This document shows, piece by piece, positions 10,766 to 34,040 of a stretch of DNA of 64,000 nucleotides. The position numbers were made by a program, and so were the translations under genes. The DNA is from Terriglobus sp. TAA 43 (GTDB lineage Bacteria > Acidobacteriota > Terriglobia > Terriglobales > Acidobacteriaceae). The notes under the pieces were generated by a model. The model was given only the letters and a program-made list of their open reading frames with translations, searched no databases and had not been told where the DNA came from. Numbering within the stretch: the stretch's first letter is position 1; each line of letters begins with the position of its first letter. The stretch lies in assembly GCF_000800015.1 (NCBI RefSeq), contig NZ_JUGR01000001.1:3162001-3226000 (forward strand), in the 5' to 3' direction.

Positions 10766-10897
10766 GTCATAGACGCTGTTGGACGCCGATCAATCTCCTG
10801 AGAGGGCTGCGCGGGAGCATTTCCCGACCGGGCACGCGGCATACGTGCGCAAACATTTCGCATCCTATGGCGGGTATACACTCGCTGAGGTTACCGC

Positions 10898-15023: not shown

Positions 15024-15393
15024 TCAGCGATCCTCCAAAGCGGATTAATGAGGCAACTGTCTTCCGACAATCGCGCGGGGGTAAAAATGCGACGTTCAAC
15101 GAGTAGACGGGAATTGATGACTTATGGTGACTATACGCGCTCGTATTTTGCCACTCCCTCGCAATTTTTGCGGATGTTAACTTATGTTTCATCTTGGCAG
15201 AGGCGCGTAGAAAACCGAATGCTTTAGGCCACACAATATGTGGCCGCAGTTCTGCAGCGCCACGAACAGTTGCATAATGGCAAATGCATTTTTGATAAGG
15301 TACGCCTCGGGCTTCATAAAGGCGTCATGTGTTCGTTCTACAATCGTTATGAGGGCTGCGGTCAAGGCCGCGACCCTATTTGCGGAGGTCCCG
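15024..15393. promoter_or_regulatory. Divergent promoter region between FAAL and desaturase genes, with a 19-bp dyad
   Basis: The 370-bp gap contains the dyad GGCCACA-CAATA-TGTGGCC at 15227-15245. It has 7-bp perfect arms and looks like a repressor or activator site. An ATG inside it (15238) opens a long frame into the desaturase, but the true start is downstream. I could not fix a promoter with confidence. Confidence 0.45.
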
Positions 15394-16527: not shown

Positions 16528-16591
16528 TGCAGCTCCGCCGATCCCACGTGGCAGCATGCGTTCATACAAAGCACGTCCAGAAAGGCTGGGC

Positions 16592-17974: not shown

Positions 17975-18698
17975 CTGACACTTCGACCCGCTCTACGAAA
18001 AGGAAGCTGCGTTACCCGATGCTTGGAAGGCAATAAGAAATGAGAGCTAGGAGCTAGCAGTGCGGACGAGTCGCTCTGCCTTTGCTAATCACTGCGTAAT
18101 TTCAAGGCGGAATATGCAGTTTTCAAGAAGAGAAACCAAACTAAGACTGAGTGGCGGTGGGCGCAGTCTCGGCCAAACTCATCTCCCATTGCGAACGTTT
18201 GATCAGGGATTTTACAGGGGATACGCGAATTATCGAGGGGGAGCGTAGCGCCGGGCCGCGCCCTTCGGAGGCGAGCATGAAGGCGGACGTTCATGGAGAC
18301 AGGGCTTAGCGGGGAAATGGGAGCTCGTAAAGCCTCAATCTCTACAACTACGTTGGGAATAGTTCGCTCACGCCCGCAGATCTCGATGGACTTTGCTGGA
18401 AGTGTTCCCAATGGGCCTGCAATGCTGTGTTACTTGTTGACGCTTCAACGGTTGTTTTGATCTTCCAAAGCACGCAGTTCTGCTTCCCGTATCAATCACA
18501 CGGAATGGAGAGACAGAGCGCTCCCTTTGTCAGAATCCTACTAGTAACGCGCAATATTGTTTCTTGACTTTAAATGGCGCTTACGGTTTCAATGATGCGC
18601 ATCGGATAGTCCCCTATTGTTCCCGGTTTTGCATTCGCATAGCAGATTCGAAGTATAGCTCCCAGTTCCTAGCTGACCGTATCTTGTGAGATCGACCT
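17975..18698. other. 724-bp gap upstream of the giant-gene block, holding repeat copy A
   Basis: No convincing coding frame is seen. The left copy of a roughly 140-bp imperfect repeat lies at 18129-18269. Farther down, TTGACT at 18564-18569 could be a -35 box for the giant operon, but no good -10 follows. Confidence 0.5.
18129..18269 (+). repeat. Imperfect direct repeat, copy A (left flank of giant-gene block)
   Basis: This segment shares long identical words with 33455-33597, in the same order and orientation: AGAGAAACCAA, AGTGGCGGTGGG, GCCAAACT, GAACGTTTGATCAGGGATTT with ACAGGG, and farther on GGCCGCGCCCTT. The two copies bracket the three giant genes. No ORF in it is convincing. It may be an old insertion target duplication, a recombination scar or a dispersed genomic repeat. 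Confidence 0.7.
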
Positions 18699-21600
18699 AT
18701 GCCGATGCGCCGAGGTATCACTCTGCTCGAGCTTCTTCCTCTCCCCGCTGGGGCTGAGAGTCTCGTGCCGGACGAAATTGCCAGCCAGTTGAATCTCCTT
18801 ACGGTGCTGGATTATCGGTCCATGACCACGGCAACTGCGTTTGTGCATACGGGCACAGCGCAGGCAATGCTGGATGCGCTGAATGTGAATACACGCGGTT
18901 ATGTATTCCGTGCACCGGGTATTACGGATGGTCTTAAATTTCGCCTGGCAGTCGCCCGTCCTAATCCTTTGGCAGCAAACAGCACGACGATTGAAAGTGT
19001 TGGGCAGCAGTGGCAGCTCGACCTGTTTCTTGATCCGGTGGAGTTGCAGCTTCCGTTCCGTGCCGGTGACCTTTTCACCAACGAAGAAGGCCTGGTTACG
19101 GTGCAGCCTGATCCCGGGCGGCAGAATGTCTGGCTTGTGGGCAGCGCCGTGCTGCGCGTGGCGGGTGACCCAACGGGGCACGTCACGGTTGAATTTGTCG
19201 ATCAGCCCGATCCGTTTGACATGAACCGTCCGACAGGGCCGGTGGTCGATCTCACGGTTTCTCCGCCTACTTTCGTCTTTGGATCGACGCAGTACGGCAT
19301 GACGCTCGACCGGTTTGAGATTGATGCATCGTCGAGCTACACGCCGCCCGATGTGATGGCGCGCGGCCAGGACGAAGCCTGGCAAGGCGTCGCATTCCGT
19401 GAAGCGACCTTCTATGCACCGCCAACGACGCCAATCGTTGGAGCACTGTCGATAGGGTTACGCGATGTCATCATTGGCACGCCGTTTGGCATGCAGGGTG
19501 AGATGGCGATTCAGCTTGGACAGGATCCGTCTGGCGCGAACTTTGCCACGGTGACTGCGGTGCGTGAAACGGCGACAGGCCAAACGAATGTACCGATTCC
19601 TGCCGGTACGAACGGAACCGTGCAGCTTCCGGTGGATGAAACTTCTGGCACGGCGAGTTACCACATTGAATTTGTCCTACCAGCGGGACCAGTACCGCCT
19701 CCGGGTGGCAATCCTCCGGGAACACCGGACAATACGCCGCGCGGTATCTGGTGGCAGCTTCCAAATGGTGTACAGGGAACCTCGCTTACGACACCGGCAT
19801 TTGCCGTGCCGAATCCCGGCGATCCCAGCGCCCCACTGAAATACCGTATTCGCGTGGGTGAGGATGCCCCAACAACTCCGGGCACTGTAACGACAGTTCC
19901 TGACGGACAGGTAGAACTATCCGAAGTCGACATCGTATTCCAGGGGCCGACGGTTACGGTTGGGCCTGCCGCGAATCCTCCTGCAAAGGTCACAGTTACG
20001 CAGGGAGGGACGACGTGGGCAAATGTAGCAAGCATTGCCGGGCCGCATGACAGGATTGCGGCACTCGCGTTCGGTACGAACCCCTCTGATGATGGTGCAC
20101 GCTGGCAGTTCGATAACGGCTCGTCAGGCACGGGATCTACACCGCAGCTCACGATCCCGACCGAGGTCGGCACACACAACCTGGTGATGACCTCCAACCA
20201 GGCAACACGCAATGTACGTGTTGAAATCACCAGCAGTGGAGCGCTGTTTGTCGGTCACGGTCATGGACCAAGCGGCAACGCGGATGTTGCGATCGATCCT
20301 GATCCTCTGGCCTATACCGTTCAGCCGCTGAACAAACCGAACCCACCGAATCCGCCGAACACGCCCGATCCGGGCCACACCTTCGATCTGCGCACTTACA
20401 ACTCTTCGGGTTCACTGGTTCCCTCGGCTGCTGATGCGACGTACGCAGGGTCGGGCGATCCTCTGACTGTGCCGGATGGTACAGTCGCGCAACTCACTAT
20501 TACGTGGACCGACGATGGAACGCAGGCAAACCAGAGTACCGGCTCAACGGTGCCGTCATCACCGAGCGCTCCACCTGCAACGCAGCCGAATCCGCATTTT
20601 GCTGTTTACAACTACAACGTCAACGATCCTACGCCGCCGCCGGGTTCGCATCAGGATCTGATCGACTGGGCTACGAGTGCGTTGCCGACAGGTTCGGGCG
20701 CACCGGCGCGCGTCTTCTACGTTGTGGGTCGCACGGACGATCTGTGGCTTGACGCCAAGTTGCCCAGCAACACCAGCAACAACGCGCTGCTTGCCACGAA
20801 ACGCGCTACCGGGATTGCGAGCTTTCTTACCAGCAATCTTCCGGCGGGTGCTGCGTTTTCCGTGCTTTCGCGCGGCGAGCAGGATGGGGCTACAGGCTTG
20901 GGCTGGCCTATCGATCTGGATGGTGTTGATTCGCTGGCGCGGTCTGGTACGCGAAACGCAGTACCTTCGGTGACGCCATCCGGCTCGGATCATCCTGTGT
21001 GGAAGTCCGGCTGGTCTGCTGATTCGTCGGATGTGCAGGCACACGCCACGGCAGAGTCTGCTTCGGAGCGCGGCAATGCACGGCGTGTTGATGTGTATAT
21101 TTCGCCGACCACGGCGCCGGGTGTGAATGTGCCTGCCAATCCGGGCGGAAGTCACAGCGGAAGCACACCGCAACCAAGGTCGCGCACCATGCTGGTACCG
21201 GGTGAAGATACGCCCAACCCTCCTACCGTCAAGCGCACGCTTGACCAGGCATCCACGCATCGTCCGTGGATGATGCGGCTTGCGGCAAAGTGGGACAGCC
21301 CGGTCGTGGCCACGCTGGCGGATGCAATTCCCACGGATTGCGAACTCACTGTTGCGTGGACTGCAACCGACACAACGCTTCCACGTTCGGCGGGCACAGT
21401 ACCGCCACCTGCACCGCAGAGCTCCGGCTCGAATATCTGGCTGCTGCAAGGGAAGTGGACCTACGATGCACGCTCCGGCGAAAACGCGTTCACACTTGCG
21501 CTGACGTTGCCCGACTCTGTTCTTACTTTCAATAGCGACTTTTTGGCCTGGGCTCTGGCGCTTGCACCCGCGCTATCGGGGCTGTTGCCTGCATCGGATG

Positions 21601-24600
21601 CGGCGGGAGAACTGGTCAGCTTCGTCGGATTGATGGTGGTTGGCGGCGTGGTTGGTTCGCTGATCAACGGCTCCAGCGGGAAGAACGCGGATGGCAGTGC
21701 TCATCCGCATGTAGACAGCAAGCTGCATATCCATCGCCTTGAGCTTGACTATCACGGCCAGTCGGACAATCGCGTTCGTTTCGCTCTGGATTACACAACC
21801 GAGCTGAATGTGAACTTCTCCATGTTTGGCCAGTCGCTGGTGGGCGATGGGTTGAAGATGAAGTTCAAGAACGTAGTGCTTGAGGTGGACTTCACTTCGA
21901 CAACGCTGGAGAGCGTGCGGCTGGATTACACGCAGTTCTCAGTGGAAGTAGAGAACCCGGGCACATGGGCGCTTGGCGGCACGCTTGGCAACCTGCTCAA
22001 CATCAGCAATCCTCGCTCGGGCAGTTCGTCCACGTGGATTCAGTTTGATCTGAAATTCGCGATTGACCTTGGAGTGATTCAACTCAACGGCGCGACGATC
22101 CGCCTTACCATGAACGGTCCGAATATCGGTTTTGAGATTCGCGGCCTGAATATTGGCGTGGACATTCCAGGCACGCTTTCGGGACAGGGCGCGTTGTCAG
22201 TGGGCGATGATGGCAGCCTGCGCGGCATGATTTCGGTCACCATCATTCCCACCAAGTTGAGCGCCTATGCTTCGCTTGCCATCGATCCGCCGATGGTTGC
22301 GCTAGAGATGGGGGTACAACTTCCGGTCGGTATTCCGCTGGCATCTTCCGGACTTGCGATCTATGGCTTTATTGGCCGCTTTGTTGCGAACGGTCAGCGC
22401 AATCTTCTTGGGCTTCCTACGTCCGATCCAACGCAGCCGACTTTCGATCCTGTGCAGCGCGAACTGGATTGGTACTGCCGAGCGCCGCAGGACAAGTACA
22501 GCAAACTCTCCGGTGAATTTGCGCTGGGCGTCGGCGTGATTATTGGCACCATGCCCGACGGCGGCACGACATTCAATGCACAGGGCATGATCGCTGTGTC
22601 CTTCCCTGATGTTTCAGTGGACCTTGGCATTGATGCTATGCTCATGAGCCAGCGCAAGTCCGCAGCGACAGAGCAGGGCGATTCGAGCGAAACCGGCTCG
22701 TCTTCCAACCGTTCGTTCCGCATTCTCGGCGTGGTTGTTGTGAATCCGGATTCGTTGATCCTGGGCGTGCGCGGCAGTTACAAGATTGAACGCGTTCTCG
22801 AACTTGAGATTCCCATCAATGGCTACTTCCCCTTCCACTCCAACGGACCGGGTGGCGACTGCTATTTCCGCGTTGGATCGGACGGTGTTACCAGCGAAGG
22901 ACGCACCGGCACACCGGTACAGATCAAGCTCTTTCCGGGCACGCTCGATGTAAGTGCGTGGTCGTTCCTGATGATTGAGGAGCGCAAGCTGCATAAGCTG
23001 GGCAACGATCCCACCTTGAACTTCGACGGCTTCTCGATTGGCTTTGGTGCAGGCTTCAACCTGGACTGGGGTTCGCACACCATTGGCTTGCACGCAGGCG
23101 CGAAGATGTTGCTTGGCGTCGGCACAAATCCGCTCACGTTTGCCGGAATGATCGGCGTGAACGGCGAGATTGATCTGGTCATCATCACGCTCTCGTTTGA
23201 AGGCGATATTCACTTCATCATTGCCGACCAGGCGAGTGGCTTGATGTGGCACCTGCACGGACACTTCTGTGCCTCGATTGATTGCTTCTTCTTCTCGATC
23301 AGCGGTTGTGTGGATATCGACTTCGGTAGCGATGGCGGCAACCCGATTCCTACGCCCAAGAGCCCGATCCTGGGCGTCGATCTTACCGATCATCTGGGAG
23401 CAGTGAAGGGCAAAGCCATTCCGAGCGGAGCAGGACAACTGCCGACCGTGTGGCCAGACACAATTCCGGTGGCACACTTCGCCCATTATGCGGTGGACAC
23501 AGCAGCTTCTGCGGGAGTCTTCAATCGCTTGATTGACGAGCCTGCGACGGACAATCCGTGGAGCGGTACGAACGATCTGAAATATGCCTTCCAGCTCGTC
23601 AGCGTTGAGCTTTGGAAGTATCCCGATGCCTCGTTCACGGGCGGAACGCAGATCACCGATGCGGGGCTTTATGACTCGGCGTGGTGGCTGCCGACGCATC
23701 GGCCCGGAGTGGCTACGCCGGATAATTCTGCTTCACCGCTGGAAGGTCGCGAGTTGGGTTTCATGTGGTGGAATCCTGCGCCCTGGTCGCGCTGGTTGAG
23801 TGACGGCAGCGAAAGCGTTCCCGGAGACCCATCGCAGACATGGGGCAACGTCTGCGATCCTCCACCTGCGCCAAAGCCAGTCTGCGCGCTTGGCCAGAAC
23901 GCGGTGCAGCTCGATCACAACACGGCACAGTTCGTGCCGCTTGCTCCCAGCCCTGGGCCTTTCAGCAGCTTCTTTACGGTGAGCGGTGGCCTGCCTGCCG
24001 ATGTGCTGGCTACGTTGCAGGCCCTGGTTGCGGCGTATGGACTCAGCATCACGCCCGCCGGTGTGCGTAATCTTGCGGCTCCGTTGAACCTGCCCAACGG
24101 AGTGAACGTTACGGCTGGCTACATGTTGCAGTTGCTCATGCGGCAGGGACGCTTGCTCGGCTCCGCGCCATTCGCAGGGCGCTTCTCTGCGACGATCACA
24201 CGCTGCTCGCTGGTGCTGCTGGTCTGTCCTCACAGCAAGTACGATGTTTCCGGATGTGACGACTTCACCGATCAATCGACGAACACGCAGCTTCCCAATC
24301 CGTATAACCACAACGGGCTGGTTTACGAATCGCTCGATTCCAAGCCGCTTACCGTCAATGCACAGCACGGAGCGTTGTTCAGCACAGGAGTCAAAGTCAC
24401 TCTGCCACAGGCAGTGAGTTCCGTTACCGTGACGGTTGCCGGGCTGAAGTCGCCAGCCTTTGTTGTGACCGCATTGAACAGCAGTGGCAAGATTGTCGCG
24501 AAGAACACCGGCGCACCCACGGGCGATGCTGGCCCGGTCGATATCACGGTCAGTGGCGACGGTATTGTGGTGGTTATGGTGAGGGGTGGTGCCCGCGCGT

Positions 24601-26348
24601 CACTCATTCGCGTCTGCTGGACGCTCTCTGGCACCAGCATGCTGCAAACGATCTACGGCCGTACTGCTGCCGTATGGCCATCCGTGCCGACGGTCTTTGG
24701 AACAGGAGCAGACAATAAGCAGATCGCCTGGAATGCCAAGGTGATCGGGACGCCGCCTTTATCCGGTGCGACCGTTCCCACGAACCTGTCAGCGGTTTAC
24801 ATTCCGCCGAAGTGTCAGCTCGTTGTGTATACGCCGCCGGATACAAACGCTGTCTGGAACGGATTCGAGATTGAGCCAATCGCAGCGGCCACGGTGGAGA
24901 TTCTCTCTGTCTGCGGCATTACGGTTGCGGCGCTACAGGCGCAGCAGCAGGATGCCGCCGTGCGGAACTCGTTGCAGAATGCATGGAACAATGCTGCGAA
25001 TCTCGCGTCGGGCAATGCGGGGGCAGGAACTTCTTCGGGAACGCCGAACAACGCAGGCGACAACGGTCCCAACTCGACACGCACAAACCTCTTCGACAAG
25101 GACAGCTATTACGAACTGCGGCTTACATGGCAGTGGCAAGGATGGCGCTCTGATCCGAGCAACTCTGCTGCGCAGAATCCACCGTTGCCGTTGCCGGGCA
25201 CGTGGACTAACGGCACGACCGACCTCTATCGCTTCCACACCGCGAAGGAGCAGGTATCGACACCGAACCCGCATACGCTGGGTGACCACTTCATCACCGA
25301 TCCCACGCAGGCCGGTGCTGTGTATGACGAGAGCGTGTTTGACGCGCATGGCATTGCGCGTTATCTCATCGGCTTCAGCCCGGCGCCGAACGATCCGCCG
25401 CATTACCTTGACGACGACATTCTCGCCAGCTTCAACGCGGATCACATTCAGACGCTGCTCGACATCTATGCGCGCACGCTGCGGATCAAAGTACGCCGCA
25501 CCGATCCACCTCCGGGAACATTTAGCGCTGCCAAGCCGGACCCGAATGGGCCCATTGTGCCGGTGATCATACCGAAGCCAAAGCACGCGCTTGATGTGCA
25601 TAGCTCTGCTTCGTGGGGACCCCTGCCGAAGGAGATGATGTACGCTGCCGATGCAAGAGCAGAGGCCGCGGCCAGCGCTGCCCCGTGCCTCAATGGCAAC
25701 GGTGCTTTCGGTGGCACACAGGCCACGATCAAGGCCGATCTGTTGCCGGATGCCGAGTATGACATCCTGCTGGTTGCTGCGCCGAACAACGATCTTGAGT
25801 TGGATGAAGTGCTGGTCGAACGCAGCCATTTCATCACCTCCAGCTACCGGAATCCGCAGGAGCAGTTTGAGGCGATGGGCTTCGCGCTCGGAACTCCTGT
25901 GCCGTGGGCACCGCACGACTTTGAAGTGACAGCAATCGCGCCAACGGCAACGCTGTATTCGGATGCTTCGCTTGTGGCCACGCTTGCGGCGATGGGCTTT
26001 ACTTCTGAGCCAGTGCCACCCCTGCCGCAGGCGACAGCACTATGGCGCGCACCGGTGGGCGCAGGGCCGTGGCAGTTGGCGGGTCTACTGCTTGAATCGG
26101 ATGAGCCGCTGCTGCGTGACGGTCGACTCTCTATCGTTAATGCGAGCCTTGCCGGTGCAGGAAGTCTTTCGCTCTGGGCATGCAATCAGAGCGCCACGCG
26201 AGTGCTGCTGGCAACGGCAAGTCCATTCAATGTGCCTGCTGGCTCTAACGTGCTCAACGTCACGTTCCAGAAACCGTCGGCGGCAACGCAAACTGTCAGC
26301 CGTGTTCTCTTTGAACGGCCGCTCACTCGTCTACAGGAGGGCGCCTAA
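18699..26348 (+). CDS. Giant multidomain protein with OmpA-like segment and beta-rich core, 2549 residues
   Basis: First gene of the giant trio. There is no signal peptide (MPMRRGITLLELLPLP). Residues 1-600 are Pro/Gly/Thr-rich beta domains. Residues about 630-800 resemble an OmpA-like domain: VFYVVGRTDD, then NNALLATKRATGIASFL, SVLSRGEQDG and NARRVDVYI, the order of peptidoglycan-binding OmpA C-domains. Two hydrophobic helices follow near 945-990 (ALALAPALSGLLPAS, VGLMVVGGVVGSLI). A long amphipathic beta-strand region covers about 1010-1550, rich in LDLG, VDIP and LGV patterns and ending in a Cys-rich FCASIDCFFFSISGC. The last 1000 residues are mixed beta domains. I recognise no named family for the whole. 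The stop overlaps the next start (TAATG). Confidence 0.8.
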   Translation: MPMRRGITLLELLPLPAGAESLVPDEIASQLNLLTVLDYRSMTTATAFVHTGTAQAMLDALNVNTRGYVFRAPGITDGLKFRLAVARPNPLAANSTTIESVGQQWQLDLFLDPVELQLPFRAGDLFTNEEGLVTVQPDPGRQNVWLVGSAVLRVAGDPTGHVTVEFVDQPDPFDMNRPTGPVVDLTVSPPTFVFGSTQYGMTLDRFEIDASSSYTPPDVMARGQDEAWQGVAFREATFYAPPTTPIVGALSIGLRDVIIGTPFGMQGEMAIQLGQDPSGANFATVTAVRETATGQTNVPIPAGTNGTVQLPVDETSGTASYHIEFVLPAGPVPPPGGNPPGTPDNTPRGIWWQLPNGVQGTSLTTPAFAVPNPGDPSAPLKYRIRVGEDAPTTPGTVTTVPDGQVELSEVDIVFQGPTVTVGPAANPPAKVTVTQGGTTWANVASIAGPHDRIAALAFGTNPSDDGARWQFDNGSSGTGSTPQLTIPTEVGTHNLVMTSNQATRNVRVEITSSGALFVGHGHGPSGNADVAIDPDPLAYTVQPLNKPNPPNPPNTPDPGHTFDLRTYNSSGSLVPSAADATYAGSGDPLTVPDGTVAQLTITWTDDGTQANQSTGSTVPSSPSAPPATQPNPHFAVYNYNVNDPTPPPGSHQDLIDWATSALPTGSGAPARVFYVVGRTDDLWLDAKLPSNTSNNALLATKRATGIASFLTSNLPAGAAFSVLSRGEQDGATGLGWPIDLDGVDSLARSGTRNAVPSVTPSGSDHPVWKSGWSADSSDVQAHATAESASERGNARRVDVYISPTTAPGVNVPANPGGSHSGSTPQPRSRTMLVPGEDTPNPPTVKRTLDQASTHRPWMMRLAAKWDSPVVATLADAIPTDCELTVAWTATDTTLPRSAGTVPPPAPQSSGSNIWLLQGKWTYDARSGENAFTLALTLPDSVLTFNSDFLAWALALAPALSGLLPASDAAGELVSFVGLMVVGGVVGSLINGSSGKNADGSAHPHVDSKLHIHRLELDYHGQSDNRVRFALDYTTELNVNFSMFGQSLVGDGLKMKFKNVVLEVDFTSTTLESVRLDYTQFSVEVENPGTWALGGTLGNLLNISNPRSGSSSTWIQFDLKFAIDLGVIQLNGATIRLTMNGPNIGFEIRGLNIGVDIPGTLSGQGALSVGDDGSLRGMISVTIIPTKLSAYASLAIDPPMVALEMGVQLPVGIPLASSGLAIYGFIGRFVANGQRNLLGLPTSDPTQPTFDPVQRELDWYCRAPQDKYSKLSGEFALGVGVIIGTMPDGGTTFNAQGMIAVSFPDVSVDLGIDAMLMSQRKSAATEQGDSSETGSSSNRSFRILGVVVVNPDSLILGVRGSYKIERVLELEIPINGYFPFHSNGPGGDCYFRVGSDGVTSEGRTGTPVQIKLFPGTLDVSAWSFLMIEERKLHKLGNDPTLNFDGFSIGFGAGFNLDWGSHTIGLHAGAKMLLGVGTNPLTFAGMIGVNGEIDLVIITLSFEGDIHFIIADQASGLMWHLHGHFCASIDCFFFSISGCVDIDFGSDGGNPIPTPKSPILGVDLTDHLGAVKGKAIPSGAGQLPTVWPDTIPVAHFAHYAVDTAASAGVFNRLIDEPATDNPWSGTNDLKYAFQLVSVELWKYPDASFTGGTQITDAGLYDSAWWLPTHRPGVATPDNSASPLEGRELGFMWWNPAPWSRWLSDGSESVPGDPSQTWGNVCDPPPAPKPVCALGQNAVQLDHNTAQFVPLAPSPGPFSSFFTVSGGLPADVLATLQALVAAYGLSITPAGVRNLAAPLNLPNGVNVTAGYMLQLLMRQGRLLGSAPFAGRFSATITRCSLVLLVCPHSKYDVSGCDDFTDQSTNTQLPNPYNHNGLVYESLDSKPLTVNAQHGALFSTGVKVTLPQAVSSVTVTVAGLKSPAFVVTALNSSGKIVAKNTGAPTGDAGPVDITVSGDGIVVVMVRGGARASLIRVCWTLSGTSMLQTIYGRTAAVWPSVPTVFGTGADNKQIAWNAKVIGTPPLSGATVPTNLSAVYIPPKCQLVVYTPPDTNAVWNGFEIEPIAAATVEILSVCGITVAALQAQQQDAAVRNSLQNAWNNAANLASGNAGAGTSSGTPNNAGDNGPNSTRTNLFDKDSYYELRLTWQWQGWRSDPSNSAAQNPPLPLPGTWTNGTTDLYRFHTAKEQVSTPNPHTLGDHFITDPTQAGAVYDESVFDAHGIARYLIGFSPAPNDPPHYLDDDILASFNADHIQTLLDIYARTLRIKVRRTDPPPGTFSAAKPDPNGPIVPVIIPKPKHALDVHSSASWGPLPKEMMYAADARAEAAASAAPCLNGNGAFGGTQATIKADLLPDAEYDILLVAAPNNDLELDEVLVERSHFITSSYRNPQEQFEAMGFALGTPVPWAPHDFEVTAIAPTATLYSDASLVATLAAMGFTSEPVPPLPQATALWRAPVGAGPWQLAGLLLESDEPLLRDGRLSIVNASLAGAGSLSLWACNQSATRVLLATASPFNVPAGSNVLNVTFQKPSAATQTVSRVLFERPLTRLQEGA

Positions 26349-29300
26349 TGTATCTAGCACCGCGTTGGGCCTTCAGCGCCCAGGCCATTGACGCCACCGG
26401 CGATGCACGACTGGCCAAGGGCATTCATGTGCGCGCACTGCTCTCTGATGTGCTTGGGCTGCCTTCCGCACCGCTGCTCGTCTACCGTCTCCCCGTTGAT
26501 TTTGGTGAGAAGCTATGGCGCAGAGATGTGGTCTGGGTAGACAGCCACGGAGCTGTACTCAGTTATCCATTCACGGTAACGCCGGATAATCCTGTCACGG
26601 GATGGTTGCCTGTCGGCTCTACCTGCTGCTGGTTTTCCATGGAAGGCACGGCGGCTCCCATCATCATTCGTCCACCGTTTCCGCTTCCCATTGGCGTTGT
26701 GGATGCCACAGTCAATAAGACCGTGGCGCATCCTGCGCTCACTCCATCGGCGGTTACTTCATCGGCGGCGGCTGCTGCCCAGGCGCAAACGGCACGTCCG
26801 GTTGCAGGGCCAGTGATCACCGCAACCACAGTTACGACAGCTCCTGTTGCTACAACACCGATTAACAAAGTACCAATCGTTGTTCCGCCGACGATCTTCA
26901 CTCGACTGGCTGCCTTTCAACTGGACGCAGTCGTATCCACTGCACGCGGACCTGCTGTGGTTGCAACCCGCACCGGGCAGCCGTACATCGTGACGGCTTC
27001 GCATATCGAACAGGTGGTGGTGCATGGCAGCGGCACGGTCACCGGGGCGGAATGGGTGGATGCAGGCAGGCTCGGCACGTTAGGTGACCGTCTGCAATTG
27101 TGGAAGCAGTGGAGCCTGCCGGTGCAATCCGGGCCGCGCTATCTTGCCGAGGTCAATCCCACCACGAATTCCAAGTTGCGCACGCAGTCAGGCGCCCCCA
27201 CGCGCCATGCGCTCTACCAGGAACCGACAGCTGCGGATGTTGCCTCTGCAAGTGCAGCCACACCGAACGATGAGCTCAATCGTGTCACAGCACTGGCACC
27301 GGATCTGGATAACTGGCTCCAGAGGCTCGTCTCTGACACCAGCGCTGACCCGTGGTCGCTGGTACAGAACTTTACCGTGCAGGCAGGGGAGGATGCTTCC
27401 AATCCTGATACGCAGGGAGCGGCTTCCATGCCGCTGCTGCGCATGGCACTGCAATCCATTATGGATCCCGGTCTCGCGCGCTGGTCCGGCTTCTATGAGG
27501 TGGACACGGCACCGGCAGTCAGTGCTTCGGCAGGGGCTGCGAGGACCACTGCGTATTACGCCATTGCCGGTATCTGGCCGCTCGACCGCAAGCGCATTCC
27601 ACAAGCACTGATCGATACTCTGCCGCCGGGCAGCATCTTCGACTCTTCACAGATTCCTGTGAACAAGCGCCTGCCGTTGAAGGTGCAGGGTGAATTGCCG
27701 AAGGGAGAATACGTTGAGTTGTGGGTGGTAGCCGCGGCGGCAATAGGTGCGCCCGGCAATCCACCTTTGGCACCGGCTCTTGCACCGGAGCCAGGCACGT
27801 GGATGCCGAGTCCGCCAACAGCTCCCATTCGGCAGATACCCATTGATATCAGCGGACTCTTCCCTGGCGCGTTGCTGGCTTTCGCGCGGCAGGATACCTC
27901 GGGCATTGTGCCGCTTAACCCGGTCGACAAAAACAACGCACCGATGCCGATTGTTTCGTCCCCGACAAAGGCCAGCATGGTGAGTGGTGTTGCGCAGATT
28001 ACAGACCGCAAAGCGCCGCCGGGAGTGCTGACGTACCGTCTCTCGCAGAGTGACTGGTTCGGACGGTTCAGTCCGTGGGCTAAGGTGAATGCGCCGGACC
28101 AGACGAGAACCGCGCCGCCTAAACCTACACCGGAGGTCTTCTATACACCGCCAGCCCCTGTTGGCAGTACGCCGCTTGCCGGTACATTGCTGGTGCGCGT
28201 GCCGATTCCTGGGGATGCTGCCTTGCCGCCCGGATGCGGGCCTCTTACAGGCTTGATCGTTGAAGCCACGGCGGCTGACGTTGGATTCAACGTGAACGCG
28301 ACCTATTCGTTGAGTGGTGGCAGCGGCGTGACGATTACGCCTGCGGTTGTAGGGCCACCACCCAAGCCCGCAACGCTGAACATCCAGTTCAACGGCCCAG
28401 CTTTGAATGTGGCTGCTTCCACAACGGTTTCGATTACAGCGCAGTGGCAGACAGCGACGGCGGTTTCACTTGTTTCAGAACCAGTGCAGCGATTTATCGG
28501 CGATCCTCGGCCTGCGCCGCCGCCTGTCATTCCTTCAAGTCTGCGCTACACCGCCAAACCCGATGCGATGAATCGTGCGCGCTTTGAAATCGATTTGCCT
28601 ACGGTTGCCGGTGCGCAATACCGCGTCTATTTTGCGGACGAGAACCAGCTTCTGAAGGGCGTGCAAAATCTCATTGCCAGCACTGACCCGCAGGTGACCT
28701 CTGCGCTTAAAAGCCAGGCGAATGCGGCATTGCCGGACTTGACTGCCGCACTGGCGATGAATGCCACTGACCGCGCTGCTGCTTTCATGGCGCACTCCGC
28801 GCTCTACACCTACGACATGTTCCAGAACCTGACGCAGACAGCCGTTGCGCCGGGAACGTTTGCGCATTCGCTGCCGGGTGATCTCAAGACGCTCTCGTTC
28901 TATCGCGTCCTCACATGGAACGCGGCGAATGTGGGGAGCGATTTCCTTACCTCCCCACTGGTTCCGGTGGCTGTTCCGAACGATCCACCGCCGGCGCGTC
29001 CAGCCATCTCGGTGAAGCCAGCCCAGGATGTTTCTGGCGCAATCATCGGTGCGGCTGTGACGGTACGCGTGGCCAGAACAGCGGTTGATCCGGTGCAGTA
29101 TCGTGTGCGTCGGTCGTTTGCCGGTGCCACGCCTGATCCCCGCCGCATGCTCGTGATCTACGAAGGTGTTTTACCAGCCAGTGGAACCGATGCGGCTCCG
29201 GTAAGCGGCTTGAAGAGCGGGCCAAACGGTGTCACTTTTATTCACACGGATGCGACTGGCATCAAGCCGTGGCATCGCTATGCGTGGTGTGTGGAACTAC

Positions 29301-29713
29301 GCGGTGGCGCACCCGTCGGCTCACCTTCTGGCACCTCGATCCACGGAGATTACGGGCCGCCAAGCAAGCCTGCTTCGACGATGATTGTGCCTCCGAACCC
29401 GCCTGATCCTGTTGCAACATTGACCGGTGTTCGTAACGGCTCCGGCAAGGCCGACCTCGCATGGACTGTTACCGGCAATCCGGTCGAAATGATGTCAACG
29501 GATATGGGGCCGCACAGATTTGAGTTGTATCGCATTCCTGCAGGGGCGCGGCCTGTCCTTGTGGCTATGACAACGGTTCCGCAGGCCGATGCCAGCAATG
29601 TTTTCCGCTTTACCGATCCGGATACACCTGCGGGCAGCGTCAGCTACCGCGTTGTTGTTGTGGACCCGCTGGGCCGTGCCAGTCAGCCCAGCCTAACCGT
29701 GAAACTCACATAA
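26348..29713 (+). CDS. Large unknown protein with FN3-like C-terminus, 1121 residues
   Basis: Second gene of the trio, translationally coupled to the first (its ATG uses the last base of the preceding TAA; AGGAGG lies 8 bases upstream). There is no signal peptide. It is rich in Pro, Ala and Thr, with low-complexity Ala/Thr/Val around residues 115-180. Beta-sandwich units appear near 720-800 and at the end, where PVATLTGVRNGSGKADLAW to VSYRVVVVDPLGRAS looks like a fibronectin type III domain. No catalytic motif is visible. Such a composition fits a structural or scaffolding partner of the first and third proteins. I do not recognise a family. Confidence 0.75.
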   Translation: MYLAPRWAFSAQAIDATGDARLAKGIHVRALLSDVLGLPSAPLLVYRLPVDFGEKLWRRDVVWVDSHGAVLSYPFTVTPDNPVTGWLPVGSTCCWFSMEGTAAPIIIRPPFPLPIGVVDATVNKTVAHPALTPSAVTSSAAAAAQAQTARPVAGPVITATTVTTAPVATTPINKVPIVVPPTIFTRLAAFQLDAVVSTARGPAVVATRTGQPYIVTASHIEQVVVHGSGTVTGAEWVDAGRLGTLGDRLQLWKQWSLPVQSGPRYLAEVNPTTNSKLRTQSGAPTRHALYQEPTAADVASASAATPNDELNRVTALAPDLDNWLQRLVSDTSADPWSLVQNFTVQAGEDASNPDTQGAASMPLLRMALQSIMDPGLARWSGFYEVDTAPAVSASAGAARTTAYYAIAGIWPLDRKRIPQALIDTLPPGSIFDSSQIPVNKRLPLKVQGELPKGEYVELWVVAAAAIGAPGNPPLAPALAPEPGTWMPSPPTAPIRQIPIDISGLFPGALLAFARQDTSGIVPLNPVDKNNAPMPIVSSPTKASMVSGVAQITDRKAPPGVLTYRLSQSDWFGRFSPWAKVNAPDQTRTAPPKPTPEVFYTPPAPVGSTPLAGTLLVRVPIPGDAALPPGCGPLTGLIVEATAADVGFNVNATYSLSGGSGVTITPAVVGPPPKPATLNIQFNGPALNVAASTTVSITAQWQTATAVSLVSEPVQRFIGDPRPAPPPVIPSSLRYTAKPDAMNRARFEIDLPTVAGAQYRVYFADENQLLKGVQNLIASTDPQVTSALKSQANAALPDLTAALAMNATDRAAAFMAHSALYTYDMFQNLTQTAVAPGTFAHSLPGDLKTLSFYRVLTWNAANVGSDFLTSPLVPVAVPNDPPPARPAISVKPAQDVSGAIIGAAVTVRVARTAVDPVQYRVRRSFAGATPDPRRMLVIYEGVLPASGTDAAPVSGLKSGPNGVTFIHTDATGIKPWHRYAWCVELRGGAPVGSPSGTSIHGDYGPPSKPASTMIVPPNPPDPVATLTGVRNGSGKADLAWTVTGNPVEMMSTDMGPHRFELYRIPAGARPVLVAMTTVPQADASNVFRFTDPDTPAGSVSYRVVVVDPLGRASQPSLTVKLT

Positions 29714-29720
29714 GATCGCC

Positions 29721-32700
29721 ATGCCTACTGCACTCGTCCCCGCGAACCTCGCCGACCTGAACCTCTCGTCGCCTGCGCTGGGTCCATGGTTCTCCACCAG
29801 CGTTACGATTGCCGCGCCCGGCGATTCACTTTCTGCCAGCTTCACACTGTCCGCGAGCACAGATTGGCTGCCGCCAGCAACGGGCGTGCTCAGCCTTTAC
29901 ATTGGCGGATCGCAGTTGCCGATATCGATTGCCACCTTGCGCAATGCACAGGGGGCTGCGCCCTTCGGCACCAATCACCTAGTGGCGGTTTACCAGCTTC
30001 TGCCCGAAGTGGAAGAGCGGCTTGATGCTCTCATGCTCTTCGTGCCGCCGGTGGATGCGAACCCTCCGGTAACTGTTCCCACAACGGCTGGAACTGCCGC
30101 GACACGTGCCCGTGTGCGCTGGTTTGCCATTGAGTTTCCTGATTCGTTTCTGGGTGCTTCGCCGCTCGACCAGATCGTATCGGTCATTCCATCGCCTGAT
30201 GCTTCCATTACCGGCGATGATCGCGCGGAGTATCTCGGCTTTAAATTGCAGGGCGGTCAACTTACGAATGGCGATTCGCCCATGGCCGATCTGCGTCGTG
30301 CGGGTGAGTACACCTTGCCGCTCGGTGGAGGAACAGGGCAGGACAAGGTACTGCAAAACCTGCCTGCGGGCACGTATACGCTCTGGGCCTTCGATGCCCG
30401 AGGCCATGCGATTGATCCCGGCGCCGTGGCTGCATGGTGGACTTATCTTGGGCAAATTGTCTTCTCCAACCTGTGGGCTCCGAATGTGTGGCCAGCGGCG
30501 ACGCCGCTCGATCAGCAGGTGGTCTGCGCAGCGGACGCAAAGCTCACCGTACACCTGGTCAATCCGCATGAAGGCGCATTGGCTGCGCCTTTGCTAAACG
30601 GACGGCTTAACGTTACGGGTGCAGTGGACGGTACGGTTGCGATTTGCAGCGCGTCCAACGCGAGTAGCGGGATGAGTTTTGCCTTTGGCACAGCCAGCGA
30701 TTCGAACGTGGATGACGCGCCGGTTCCTCGCGTGGCGCTGTTGCCATCCGGTAAGTACGGAAGCACGCTCGCCATCTGGCCGGGTGGGCCGGTGGGAACC
30801 ACAACAACATCCACGAAGCTTCTTCAGCGCGATTTTGTGCGTGTTGCGGCAGTGGATGTGGAGCAGTTTCTGGTGGGGCAAGAGCGCGGAACAACGTCCG
30901 TCACCGATTCTTCGACTCCGATGGAAAAACGCGCAGCCGATCAGAACCGCGCCTCGACACGCGTGAATGTTGCACGTGCCACGAATGCCGATGCGGTACT
31001 GCAACCCACGATCGAAGCGGCTACGAGTGCGTTGCTCGGCGTTTTTACTGCCGCTGCTGCACCGCGTCGACTCGTTACCTCGACCGTTTCGCGTGGACTG
31101 GGCGCGCTGCCGTTCAAGCCTGGCAGCGAAACCGATCCCGATGCATTTCACACAGCCTCAGCGCTGCCCACGTTGCCGGGAGGAACAAAAATTCCACTCG
31201 ACATCAACTCGGATGGGTCGACTGTACCGTTTTACGTTGTACATGCGCTGACGGGAGGACATCTGCAGTCAGCCGGTGTTACGACAAAGCAGCGCGTACT
31301 CTTTGAATTCAATCTGGGCACGGCCTTTGCCAATGCGTGGGTTCGCGTGTGGCCCGAGGGCTTTGACGATGTCGTCGGTGTACATGTGCGCATGGATGGT
31401 GGTTCAGGCCGCGTGGGTGCCGATGGCAAGGCACACGTTGTAGCCACGCTGCCGGACGTGGGCACGATCAGTCCTGCGGCACCCGCTGCCTTCACTGCGA
31501 TGCTGGTTACGGCCAATGGTTCACGCACGTATGCCGACAAACGTTTCAACCGTCCTTCGCCACCCGCGAGCAACACACCTGCAACTCTTGCAGCTTCGTC
31601 CAACTGGATTCTCTGCGAAACGGCGGACAGCGGAACAGGCGCAACGCTTGGCGGAAAATTCTTCGCTGGTATGAACGTGGTGGTGGATCAGGGCAGTGGA
31701 AACTTCGCCATCGTCGATCCATCGACACTTGCCACCGCCGATTTCGCTACATCGACGCTTGTGGCGAACCTTGCCGCAGGCGACGCAATTGAATTGACGC
31801 AGCCTGCCTTCAAATCCATTCCTGACCGCTTCTCTCCCAACGGTGAACCGGCTCCGAGCAACAGTACCACCGGCGATTCGTTGGATCACCTGGGCAGCAT
31901 CTGCACGGTAGACGTCTGCCCACGCGTGGGAGCAGCAAGCCTCGTTGCTCCAGGTGGTCCTTCAGCCACAATGGAGCGGCTTGAAGTGGCATGCAGCAAC
32001 CTGAGCGGAGCTACTGTCTCCGGCGCAATCGCCAGCGCACCGGGACTCGGCATCCACCACGAATTGCTCACGCACGATGCAGCGCATCCCAACGCTCCGG
32101 CAACGGCAGAGACACATGGCACGGGTGCACGTCTCGATGGCGATGCTGCTATCGGCATTGTTGAAGCTGTGCGTGATCGCACGGCTGGTCTTGGCTTCTC
32201 ATTTTTCCCAGGGTTAAACGCGGATGAAAAGACTTTGGTGGCCCGCTCAACACCGTTGCTGCTGGCGGAAGCAGCCACCACTCTACTGCCAACGATTTCT
32301 TCAACGCCGCCCGCGGACAACGGTGTCTGGGCTGCTGTCCTGCGCACGATTGCACCCGGAGTAGAAGGGGAAGGAGCCGGCTTTGCTGCAAAGGGAGCCA
32401 TTGCTGCTGGGCTGTATCCGCTGAGCGGAACCGTTTCAACCCAACTGCAAAATTGGCTCAATCAGGCTGTGAATTCTCTGCCTTCCGCAGCGCAGAGTCC
32501 GGTGAACAACGCGCTCAATGGACTCCAGCCAAACGAAGTCAGCGTGCAGCGTGCGTTCGACCGCCGCATCAAGGCCAGCGCGTTCGGTTTGCGCGAAGCT
32601 GCTTTCTCGATCAATGCAGCATTCTCTCGCGCCGAAAACTTTGTCTACATCGAAACACCAGCGCTGGACAACCGAGAATCCGGGCCAACTGGCACCGGTG

Positions 32701-33413
32701 CCGACCCAATCAACATCTGGTCAACGTTGGTTGCACAGGCAACGATTCGGAGTGGCTTGCGCATCATCGTCTGCGCGCCGTTGCACATGGTCTCCGGAAC
32801 ACCGCAGCCGATCGAAGATGTGCGCACGGCCATGATGCTGGACGCGCTCGACGCGCTGCGTCGTTCCGTGGGAGACGACCGGTTGGCCGTCTTCTATCCA
32901 TCGGCCGCAACCGGTCGTTCGCTGCGTATCTGTTCCACAACAGTCGTTGTGGATGATGCCTATGCGCTTACCGGTACAACACACCTGTGGCGGCGCGGAC
33001 TCAGCTTCGATTCATCGCTGGCAGTCTCTGTCTTTGACGACAGGCTCGAAGATGGAAGGCCGAAAGAGGTGCGTACTTTCCGGCGTCGTCTCATGGCTGG
33101 CAGGCTCGGCATCCCGCTTTCGCAGCTTCCCGACGATCCCGGGGAAATGGTGAAGGCAATCAACCTGCTGGTGCAACGCGGATCAAGCCGCGTGACCGCA
33201 ACCCTGCCAGGACAACCGGGTCCCTTCACTCCCACGGGAGAAGCCACGGTACTCACCTATCCGACAAGCGCGGACAATGGCCCGAGTGCTTCCGATCGCG
33301 ATACATGGAACCCCAACGGCTTCGACTCCGCACTCACCTTCGACAATCTCTGGAGTAAGCTGCGCCGCACAACCGCCAAGAACAGCGTGGACGCAACGCT
33401 GAACGGAACATAG
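29721..33413 (+). CDS. Large unknown protein with phospholipase D-like C-terminal region lacking the HKD motif, 1230 residues
   Basis: Third gene of the trio, 7 bp after the second. The N-terminal 600 residues are beta-rich with several Gly/Pro turns and no signal peptide. The C-terminal 300 residues follow the layout of a PLD half: a helix with FVYIETPALDN, then IIVCAPLHM, and TTVVVDDAYALTGTTHLWRRGL-FDSSLAVSVFDD (broken here by a short gap). In active PLD enzymes the last part carries HxKxxxxD; here the His/Lys are replaced (TTVVVDD). I infer a catalytically altered PLD fold. It probably works with the two upstream proteins. Confidence 0.75.
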   Translation: MPTALVPANLADLNLSSPALGPWFSTSVTIAAPGDSLSASFTLSASTDWLPPATGVLSLYIGGSQLPISIATLRNAQGAAPFGTNHLVAVYQLLPEVEERLDALMLFVPPVDANPPVTVPTTAGTAATRARVRWFAIEFPDSFLGASPLDQIVSVIPSPDASITGDDRAEYLGFKLQGGQLTNGDSPMADLRRAGEYTLPLGGGTGQDKVLQNLPAGTYTLWAFDARGHAIDPGAVAAWWTYLGQIVFSNLWAPNVWPAATPLDQQVVCAADAKLTVHLVNPHEGALAAPLLNGRLNVTGAVDGTVAICSASNASSGMSFAFGTASDSNVDDAPVPRVALLPSGKYGSTLAIWPGGPVGTTTTSTKLLQRDFVRVAAVDVEQFLVGQERGTTSVTDSSTPMEKRAADQNRASTRVNVARATNADAVLQPTIEAATSALLGVFTAAAAPRRLVTSTVSRGLGALPFKPGSETDPDAFHTASALPTLPGGTKIPLDINSDGSTVPFYVVHALTGGHLQSAGVTTKQRVLFEFNLGTAFANAWVRVWPEGFDDVVGVHVRMDGGSGRVGADGKAHVVATLPDVGTISPAAPAAFTAMLVTANGSRTYADKRFNRPSPPASNTPATLAASSNWILCETADSGTGATLGGKFFAGMNVVVDQGSGNFAIVDPSTLATADFATSTLVANLAAGDAIELTQPAFKSIPDRFSPNGEPAPSNSTTGDSLDHLGSICTVDVCPRVGAASLVAPGGPSATMERLEVACSNLSGATVSGAIASAPGLGIHHELLTHDAAHPNAPATAETHGTGARLDGDAAIGIVEAVRDRTAGLGFSFFPGLNADEKTLVARSTPLLLAEAATTLLPTISSTPPADNGVWAAVLRTIAPGVEGEGAGFAAKGAIAAGLYPLSGTVSTQLQNWLNQAVNSLPSAAQSPVNNALNGLQPNEVSVQRAFDRRIKASAFGLREAAFSINAAFSRAENFVYIETPALDNRESGPTGTGADPINIWSTLVAQATIRSGLRIIVCAPLHMVSGTPQPIEDVRTAMMLDALDALRRSVGDDRLAVFYPSAATGRSLRICSTTVVVDDAYALTGTTHLWRRGLSFDSSLAVSVFDDRLEDGRPKEVRTFRRRLMAGRLGIPLSQLPDDPGEMVKAINLLVQRGSSRVTATLPGQPGPFTPTGEATVLTYPTSADNGPSASDRDTWNPNGFDSALTFDNLWSKLRRTTAKNSVDATLNGT

Positions 33414-34040
33414 CTTTGGTTTCGTTCGGTGAGCCTTGGTCACGGACGCTGGAGAGAGAAACCAACTCAGACTAAGTGGCGGTGGGAAGAGTCCTAGCCA
33501 AACTTGTCTCTGGTTTGGAACGTTTGATCAGGGATTTTTACAGGGTATATGGGACGTTTAGCCAGTCAGAGTGGGCCTACGGCCGCGCCCTTAGGCAATA
33601 ACCGGATTTCGCCAGTCACTGAACAGGGAATAACAGGGATTGCTGGGCGTAGCCAGTCGCTCTGCACATCATTCTTGATGCCCGGTCCCGTCCTGTCTCG
33701 GCAATTCACTAGATAGGGAGGTCGGTGAGAATGAAGCCCGCGACATCGGCAGGCAGTTCGTTCAACACCTGAATGCAATCGCCAGATGGATCGAGCCGAT
33801 CGTCGTTAGGTGAGGCGCATTCATTTTCATGATGATTACTCCGCATTCGTGGGTCTCCCTAAGAATCGGGCACACTGCGCGAAGCGACGTGAACGATCAG
33901 GCTTCCAAGGTATAGGTGGCAGTGGCGGCACTCGCAAACGGCCGGTTCTGTCCGACGGCCCGATTGGCCATACATAAATAGATAGAACGGGACTGTTGCC
34001 TCTGGCTACAGCCCCTTACTTTGTCCTATAGGCGCGAATG
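33414..34040. other. 627-bp gap after the giant-gene block, holding repeat copy B
   Basis: Repeat copy B starts 42 bp after the last stop codon. The rest (about 33600-34040) has short frames only, none supported by a start signal or a family pattern. Confidence 0.5.
33455..33597 (+). repeat. Imperfect direct repeat, copy B (right flank of giant-gene block)
   Basis: Same orientation and word order as copy A. The best-kept part reads GAACGTTTGATCAGGGATTT then ACAGGG in both copies. The copies are 15.3 kb apart and separated only by the three giant genes. Divergence of roughly a quarter of positions suggests the event is old. Confidence 0.7.

What the first reader, a model, noticed from the sequence alone, without database searches (positions are those of the whole stretch)
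18129..33597. Three giant coupled genes bracketed by direct repeats: a candidate undescribed system
Genes of 2549, 1121 and 1230 residues overlap or sit 7 bp apart in one direction, fill 14.7 kb and are bounded on both sides by the same 140-bp repeat. None has a signal peptide. The domain signs (OmpA-like segment, long beta-rich core, FN3-like end, PLD-like end) suggest a large structural or delivery assembly. The system-level idea is inference; the coupling and flanking are visible.
Basis: partly seen in the sequence, partly recalled or inferred. Interest (0 to 1): 0.75.

Follow-up and report, generated by a model that had tools for sequence, protein, structure and literature searches.

The report
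Three giant genes that travel together
Three very large neighbouring bacterial genes of unknown function turn out to be one inherited unit that has moved between distant groups of bacteria, and they probably build one large cell-surface or envelope machine that has not been described.

Summary
The genes are as described: 2549, 1121 and 1230 aa (18699-33413, +), overlapping by 1 bp or 7 bp apart, without an N-terminal signal. The flanking repeat is real but shorter (95 bp, 81%) and not tied to the trio. The trio is a real unit: 8 genomes carry all three genes, adjacent and in the same order (two of the window's genus, three of the order of Leptothrix, a cyanobacterium, a Bacteroidia MAG, a Rhizobium plasmid). 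The g1 and g2 trees agree, g3 shares 4 of 5 splits; they contradict taxonomy, so the unit moves laterally. In five relatives the upstream gene block ends just before the place of the trio. Gene 1 has an OmpA-like domain and a DUF6603-related core of amphipathic beta-strands; gene 2 an LRW (FN3-like) module; gene 3 ends in a PLD-like domain without the catalytic HxK in 9 of 9. Sister loci combine LRW and DUF6603-like giants with separate PLDs that keep HxK (3 of 3). Best reading: a laterally transferred envelope-associated complex whose PLD module became non-catalytic. Function is inferred. No held paper mentions DUF6603; no known system matched.

The parts
18699..26348 (+). gene 1 (2549 aa): giant protein with OmpA-like domain and DUF6603-related beta-strand core
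   Evidence: homologues of 2371-2563 aa head the 7 other trios
20628..21152 (+). OmpA-like domain of gene 1 (residues 644-818)
   Evidence: profile of 9 homologous segments hits OmpA/Pal/OprF/MotB chains in PDB, best E 6.6e-7
21222..23318 (+). DUF6603-related core of gene 1 (residues 842-1540)
   Evidence: relative P0004 hits PF20248 at 7.3e-11; profile-profile with three DUF6603 proteins E 8.8e-10, probability 96.5; predicted antiparallel amphipathic strands
26348..29713 (+). gene 2 (1121 aa): beta-sandwich/FN3-like giant with N-terminal LRW-type module
   Evidence: second gene of the trio; remote match of the family profile to the LRW giant of Mycetohabitans
26420..26491 (+). LRW-type motif region of gene 2 (GIHVRALLSDVLGLPSAPLLVYRL, residues 25-48)
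   Evidence: like motifs in partner giants of sister loci
29721..33413 (+). gene 3 (1230 aa): unknown N-terminal 900 aa plus C-terminal PLD-like domain
32532..33128 (+). PLD-like domain of gene 3 (residues 938-1136), catalytic HxK absent
   Evidence: BLAST of P0003 to the PLDc/PLDc_2 protein of L028, E 3.6e-8; motif scan
18129..18223 (+). upstream copy of 95-bp direct repeat
33455..33549 (+). downstream copy of direct repeat
8534..17974 (.). conserved block (MMPL, AMP-binding/reductase, desaturase, P450) that ends 0.7 kb before gene 1; beyond it the region is specific to this genome
   Evidence: similarity in 5 of 18 other genomes of the genus, breaking at 17928-17983

Best explanation
Shown: the three genes form one operon-like unit that is inherited together and has moved laterally. 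Inferred: they encode one large multi-protein assembly at the cell envelope or outside it. Gene 1 is the backbone: its OmpA-like domain may hold peptidoglycan, and its amphipathic beta-meander core makes a large sheet or barrel facing membrane, lipid or a partner. Gene 2 is a scaffold or adhesive arm of FN3-like beta-sandwiches. Gene 3 ends in a phospholipase-D fold that has no catalytic HxK in any member seen, so it probably binds a phosphodiester-bearing ligand (phospholipid or nucleic acid) or a partner rather than cutting it. Sister loci combine related giants with PLD proteins that keep the HxK motif as separate genes, which suggests that PLD was the working part and became a fused, non-catalytic module in the trio lineage; this direction of change is not tested. 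With no signal peptide, export must be by an unknown route or by cell lysis.
For: Unit: adjacent, same strand and order in 8 of 8 genomes where all three genes were found (window; G006; Leptothrix, Nodosilinea, Bacteroidia MAG; R. tropici plasmid; G856 and G748). Trees: g1 and g2 (9 taxa) have the same topology, g3 (8 taxa) shares 4 of 5 splits; the window groups with G748, not with its congener G006. Gain: in five relatives the upstream block ends just before the place of the trio, and nothing from own 18-124 kb follows in the stretches compared (0.5 to 27 kb); those five have no gene-1 match. OmpA-like domain: 59 distinct PDB sequences at E<=1, nearly all OmpA/Pal/MotB/YfiB types, best 6.6e-7; one Arg is invariant in 9 of 9. 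A hydrophobic stretch (19-residue mean above 1.6) stands near the start of the core in 6 of the 7 gene 1s compared there (all but Nodosilinea). Beta core: 18 of the 21 predicted strands tested; mean side alternation 3.28 against 1.34 shuffled, 0 of 2000 shuffles reach it. PLD fold: the five Foldseek hits at E<=0.001 are all PLDs, best 3.9e-4. HxKx4D: 0 of 9 gene-3 proteins, i.e. 8 trios plus the Dehalococcoidia remnant; 3 of 3 separate PLDs of sister loci; 4 of 4 control PLDs. Sister loci: LRW giant - PLD - DUF6603-like giant in Mycetohabitans and G1305.
Against: No signal peptide, so envelope location is not shown. AlphaFold models are poor (mean pLDDT 47 and 53); for the core no solved structure matches at E<=0.001 and the porin-like matches are weak (best E 4.7e-3, rmsd 17). 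Any sheet with one buried face alternates, the strands were picked by the model itself, and 2 of the 18 show no alternation. The Asp of the OmpA peptidoglycan site (recalled) stands only in the window, Paracoccus and G748 (3 of 9). A photosystem I chain also matches the OmpA-like profile (E 0.0032). No physical interaction is shown. Paracoccus keeps g1-g2 with no gene 3 found, G014 has a gene-1 relative alone, the Dehalococcoidia MAG has g1 broken by a stop and no g2. FN3 nature of gene 2 is not confirmed by any family or PDB hit. The sister PLDs show one HxKx4D each where the four control PLDs show two, so activity of the sister PLDs is not shown.
Confidence: 0.5

Rival explanations
1. The trio is a structural part of a phage-tail-like or contractile apparatus (tail fibre, spike or baseplate-like giants) released by lysis, which would explain the missing signal peptides.
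For: No signal peptides; in two Bacteroidota-group loci a gene-1-like giant sits beside a giant with LRW motif, and in the one scanned (L076) a nearby gene has tail-fibre repeats and the LRW giant a vWA-like start, both Pfam matches below cut-off; one weak viral fold match to a named tail-fibre protein (E 3.9e-3).
Against: No sheath, tube, tape-measure or baseplate family among the flanking genes scanned in the window and G006, though several of these have no Pfam hit at all; no PHROG family below E 0.09 for the trio; relatives gave no match in phage records (P0004) or viral contigs (G006 gene 3).
Confidence: 0.17
2. A toxin-like or antagonism system: gene 1 as pore or carrier, gene 2 as shell, a PLD-type effector; the trio form is a decayed or immunity-side version.
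For: Three consecutive giants without signal peptides; one sister locus with a PLD that keeps HxK lies on a plasmid among IS and toxin-antitoxin genes; lateral spread.
Against: No Pfam family over its cut-off and no NCBIfam family in the three proteins; no conserved immunity-like gene was noticed (not searched for); HxK absent in 9 of 9 gene-3 proteins.
Confidence: 0.13
3. An intracellular anti-phage defence system with a PLD-family nuclease.
For: PLD domains serve as nucleases in some defence systems (recalled; DrmC models hit the Mycetohabitans PLD at 3.7e-6); patchy distribution and genome-specific region.
Against: No PADLOC hit for P0001, P0002, P0003 or P0006; no helicase or methylase within the unit; catalytic residues missing; the OmpA-like domain fits the envelope better.
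Confidence: 0.08
4. The trio is a composite mobile element defined by the 95-bp flanking repeats.
For: Two direct copies flank the trio; the region is absent at the same place in relatives.
Against: No transposase or integrase between the copies; an unlinked copy in G003; no flanking repeat in 5 of 6 other trios tested, a weak 40-bp one in Leptothrix (flanks of 0.6-1.5 kb, G748 not tested).
Confidence: 0.05

Closest known systems
Pfam DUF6603 (PF20248)
   Same: Gene 1 core is homologous: relative P0004 scores 41.8 bits over a 27-bit cut-off; profile-profile E 8.8e-10
   Different: The window protein itself gives no PF20248 hit. The five strong DUF6603 loci found in the phylum lie in other gene settings; of one (G133) two neighbours were compared with gene 2 and one of them with gene 3, without a match
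OmpA/Pal family
   Same: OmpA-like domain joined to a domain of long amphipathic beta strands
   Different: No signal peptide seen; domain order reversed and protein about 7 times larger than OmpA (recalled); part of a three-gene unit
Phospholipase D superfamily
   Same: C-terminal fold of gene 3
   Different: HxKx4D absent in 9 of 9; the domain is only the last fifth of a 1048-1230 aa protein
Sister loci (LRW giant - PLD - DUF6603-like giant) in Mycetohabitans plasmids and in G1305 (phylum of the Dehalococcoidia MAG)
   Same: The same three kinds of component in one gene run
   Different: Other gene order, PLD separate and with the HxK motif
Giant1-5 surface-protein gene cluster of Apilactobacillus kunkeei (PMC12863079; listing and start of abstract seen only)
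   Same: Consecutive genes for giant proteins
   Different: Five extracellular proteins of 3,000-8,000 aa in a lactic acid bacterium; no sequence comparison was made
Tc toxin complexes (recalled, by architecture only)
   Same: Consecutive giant genes of roughly similar size without signal peptides
   Different: No Pfam family over its cut-off in any of the three; no other evidence

Membership tests
DUF6603 (PF20248) | score over the curated cut-off | tested here: inconclusive
   G006 gene 1 over the cut-off; window gene 1 no hit up to E 1; profile-profile supports homology
OmpA family outer-membrane protein | OmpA-like periplasmic domain | tested here: met
   best E 6.6e-7
OmpA family outer-membrane protein | Sec signal peptide | tested here: not met
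   no hydrophobic N-terminal segment in the window protein or in the other gene 1s scanned (hydropathy scan only; G856 and G748 not scanned)
OmpA family outer-membrane protein | beta-barrel | tested here: inconclusive
   amphipathic strand meander, but weak model and weak porin matches
Phospholipase D superfamily enzyme | PLD fold | tested here: met
   (model of the Nodosilinea homologue, mean pLDDT 47)
Phospholipase D superfamily enzyme | HxKx4D catalytic motif | tested here: not met
   0 of 9 gene-3 proteins; 4 of 4 control PLDs have it
Phage-tail-like or contractile injection system | sheath, tube and baseplate genes alongside | tested here: not met
   Pfam scans of flanking genes in the window and G006 (several genes without any hit); phage and viral searches with relatives negative
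Tc toxin complex | Tc/SpvB/RHS domains | tested here: not met
   no Pfam family over cut-off in P0001-P0003; the domain list is recalled
Known anti-phage defence system | PADLOC model hits | tested here: not met
   none for P0001, P0002, P0003, P0006
Repeat-bounded mobile element | flanking repeats specific to the unit, with transposase or recombinase inside | tested here: not met
   no such family in the three genes between the copies

The most novel reading that the evidence does not exclude
DUF6603-like giants and LRW giants form the conserved core of an undescribed class of very large bacterial machines. The class occurs in several phyla, with interchangeable modules (separate PLD with HxK, fused inactive PLD, vWA-like plus fibre repeats), and works as an envelope-anchored or released apparatus that binds or delivers to membranes. 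The window holds its fused, PLD-inactive subtype.
Probability: 0.35. Interest if true: 0.85.

Novelty: categorically new. Interest (0 to 1): 0.64.

Why it matters
About 15 kb of coding capacity for three proteins is a heavy investment, and it has stayed together while moving between phyla, yet none of the searches made here found a described system that covers it. The recognisable parts (OmpA-like domain, pseudo-PLD, DUF6603-related core) make it testable: named strains (Rhizobium tropici CIAT 899, Leptothrix discophora CCM 2812) carry full trios. It would also give a first functional context for relatives of DUF6603.

Tried and rejected
Repeat-bounded transposon: rejected. Empty site marked by the repeat in G003: the single copy there is not syntenic. 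G006 gene 3 seemed to keep an H-x-K (HIKTTTVVVDD), but it is two residues out of register with the PLD motif and does not match HxKx4D. Rfam on the window at gathering thresholds: nothing. Relatedness of trio partners to one canonical DUF6603 locus (G133): two neighbours tested against gene 2, one of them also against gene 3, no match. A scan of genome contigs with P0003 alone found no relative; the PLD-domain alignment did. PDB profile search with the gene-1 core: nothing below E 0.98; with gene 3: only a plant PLD at E 0.067. Five literature searches: DUF6603 0 papers, PF20248 0 papers, two term combinations 0 papers, giant-gene phrases 22 papers of which 10 were listed; I saw only that listing with the starts of abstracts, and none of the ten is on this system by title. 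Structure models are of low confidence and are used only for strand pattern and PLD fold; the Dehalococcoidia row in their alignments seems out of frame in places. Left out of the trees: the gene-1 relatives of G014, Mycetohabitans, G1305, G1289, G1080, G1014, G1211, G1003, G1044, and Dehalococcoidia because its g1 is broken. In the LRW motif scan the pattern itself missed the gene 2 of Rhizobium and Paracoccus and all five canonical DUF6603 loci; one of its hits in L082 (a 257-aa ORF) looks like chance. Motif-pattern counts are therefore lower bounds and not a test on their own.
Full report
OBSERVATION. The repeat is a 95-bp direct repeat at 81% identity, shorter than stated. No hydrophobic N-terminal signal was seen. 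The genes have 59-60% G+C against 56% for the window. Pfam, PHROGs, NCBIfam and PADLOC gave no significant hit for the three window proteins, nor did PDB sequence searches for P0001 and P0003.

THE TRIO IS A UNIT. Among 61 related genomes (own included) gene 1 had a match in 3: the own genome, G006 and G014. G006 has the same trio (2393, 1198, 1119 aa) in the same order; in a named collection its contig is Acidobacteria isolate SZAS-4. The PLD-domain alignment found 9 loci, one of them G006. Three more hold full trios: Leptothrix discophora CCM 2812, Nodosilinea sp. FACHB-131 and a Bacteroidia MAG; a Dehalococcoidia MAG holds a broken version with g1 split by a stop and no g2. The other four (L028-L031) show no hit to genes 1 or 2; L028 and L030 are ordinary PLD proteins by Pfam. 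Plasmid searches added Rhizobium tropici CIAT 899 plasmid c (full trio) and Paracoccus aminophilus pAMI4 (g1-g2; no g3 found). Group searches with the gene-1 core profile added G856 and G748, both in the order of Leptothrix. So 8 genomes carry all three, adjacent and in the same order; where measured, gaps run from -4 to 97 bp. The unit is rare: the PLD-domain profile hit 2 of 396 genomes of the own phylum, the window's and G006; the gene-1 core profile hit 2 of 244, 3 of 300, 6 of 247 and 3 of 201 genomes of four other groups, the centre genome of each group included, one of them marginal (3.5e-4), and several being distant gene-1 relatives without a trio.

CO-INHERITANCE AND TRANSFER. Maximum-likelihood trees of g1 and g2 (9 taxa) have the same topology, and g3 (8 taxa) shares 4 of 5 splits. 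The difference, the place of the Bacteroidia and Rhizobium members, is weakly supported in g1 and g3 (39 and 45; 89 in g2). The window groups with G748 (95-100), and with Paracoccus where present (100), while its congener G006 groups with G856 and Leptothrix with Nodosilinea (100 in all three trees). This contradicts taxonomy and indicates transfer of the whole unit. In the window's genus the block 8534-17974 (transporter, reductase, desaturase, P450) or its last part is present in 5 of 18 other genomes, and similarity stops at 17928-17983; nothing from own 18-124 kb follows in the stretches compared (about 27, 27, 19, 8 and 0.5 kb). The 6.3 kb downstream of the trio has no relative in the genus but one 130-bp match.

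DOMAINS. Gene 1 residues 644-818 form an OmpA-like domain: a 9-sequence profile hits OmpA, Pal, OprF, MotB and YfiB chains, 59 distinct sequences at E<=1, best 6.6e-7, with a photosystem I and a PAN3 chain as outsiders at 0.0032 and 0.95. A hydrophobic stretch stands near the start of the core in 6 of 7 gene 1s (window 967-991). The core (842-1540) is related to DUF6603. Its model (mean pLDDT 53) is a run of long antiparallel strands whose residues alternate sides more than shuffled ones (18 of 21 strands tested). The best solved-structure matches are porins, but none reaches E 0.001; the viral library gave one match below E 0.001, unnamed. Gene 2 has an N-terminal motif, GIHVRALLSDVLGLPSAPLLVYRL in the window and LRW...GLPTEPFxVWRR in relatives; it was seen in 7 of 9 gene 2s, not in Rhizobium and Paracoccus. 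Gene 3 ends in a PLD-like domain: P0003 matches a PLDc/PLDc_2 protein at 3.6e-8 and the model of a homologue finds PLD structures first. HxKx4D is absent in 9 of 9.

SISTER SYSTEMS. In a Mycetohabitans plasmid the order is LRW giant (1322 aa), PLD (HSKLMIVD), DUF6603 giant (2496 aa). The LRW giant matches the gene-2 profile (E 1.1e-5, probability 82). G1305, a genome of the Dehalococcoidia MAG's phylum, has LRW giant, two PLDs with HxK, gene-1-like giant in one run. G1080, G1014, G1211 and G1289 have an LRW giant next to the gene-1-like giant. Of 20 gene-1-family loci examined, 15 have a gene-2 or LRW partner in the same gene run and 11 a PLD-like gene. The 20 are the eight trios, Paracoccus, Dehalococcoidia, Mycetohabitans, G1305 (two loci), G1289, G1080, G1014, G1211, G1003, G1044 and G014; the five canonical DUF6603 loci are not counted and have no LRW motif and no gene-2, gene-3 or PLD profile hit. 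The LRW pattern occurs in 1 of 795 shuffled ORF starts.

INTERPRETATION. Established: a conserved, co-inherited, laterally moving three-gene unit. Supported: OmpA-like domain, amphipathic beta core, PLD fold without catalytic motif. Inferred: one complex at the envelope or outside the cell; the PLD module as a former working part, now a binding or structural one. The direction of change (active to inactive) is not tested. Function stays open; rivals and tests are given.

KNOWN OR NEW. No paper in the held library mentions DUF6603 or PF20248, and three further searches showed nothing on this arrangement (listing only). Pfam records a family that overlaps one part, so single genes are in databases, but I found no described counterpart of the system. 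I rate it categorically new as an arrangement, with low certainty about mechanism.

Noticed in passing
L018 3256-18627, L019 1468-14963, L020 204-13010: Canonical DUF6603 genes lie in other runs of large genes (a 628-976 aa protein with FLxWxRxG in all three, a 1526-1723 aa protein in all three, a 581-595 aa protein with a TSW/TTWxRL start in two); the three partners of G133 downstream of DUF6603 have no Pfam hit: a second uncharacterised system.
   Followed up: partly
L055 7201-20222: Mycetohabitans plasmids: LRW giant and DUF6603 giant in 4 records; in L055 they flank a PLD gene and lie among IS elements and toxin-antitoxin genes.
   Followed up: partly
L076 and L077: Two Bacteroidota-group loci with a gene-1-like giant next to a giant of 1.8 kaa with LRW motif; in L076 it has a vWA-like start and a nearby gene has phage tail-fibre repeats (both Pfam matches below cut-off).
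   Followed up: no
window 43871-51483 and 53244-54506: RHS-repeat protein followed by a protein with eight Big_3_5 stretches (291-bp tandem repeat, 7.5 copies) and a phage-type integrase nearby.
   Followed up: no
window 8534-17974: Conserved lipid-type cluster (MMPL transporter, AMP-binding/reductase, desaturase, P450) in 5 of 18 other genomes of the genus, in whole or part.
   Followed up: partly
L043 16173-17309; L045 7947-8528: A metallo-beta-lactamase-fold gene lies about 1 kb upstream of the Leptothrix trio and an ECF sigma factor 0.2 kb upstream of the Bacteroidia trio.
   Followed up: no
L048; G003 C1 3740385-3740528: Single unlinked copy of the flanking repeat, about 180 bp at 80%, before an unrelated gene: a low-copy dispersed intergenic repeat of unknown role.
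   Followed up: partly
L009 9444-16220: G014 carries a lone 1579-aa gene-1 relative with two unnamed genes (166 and 490 aa) directly upstream.
   Followed up: no
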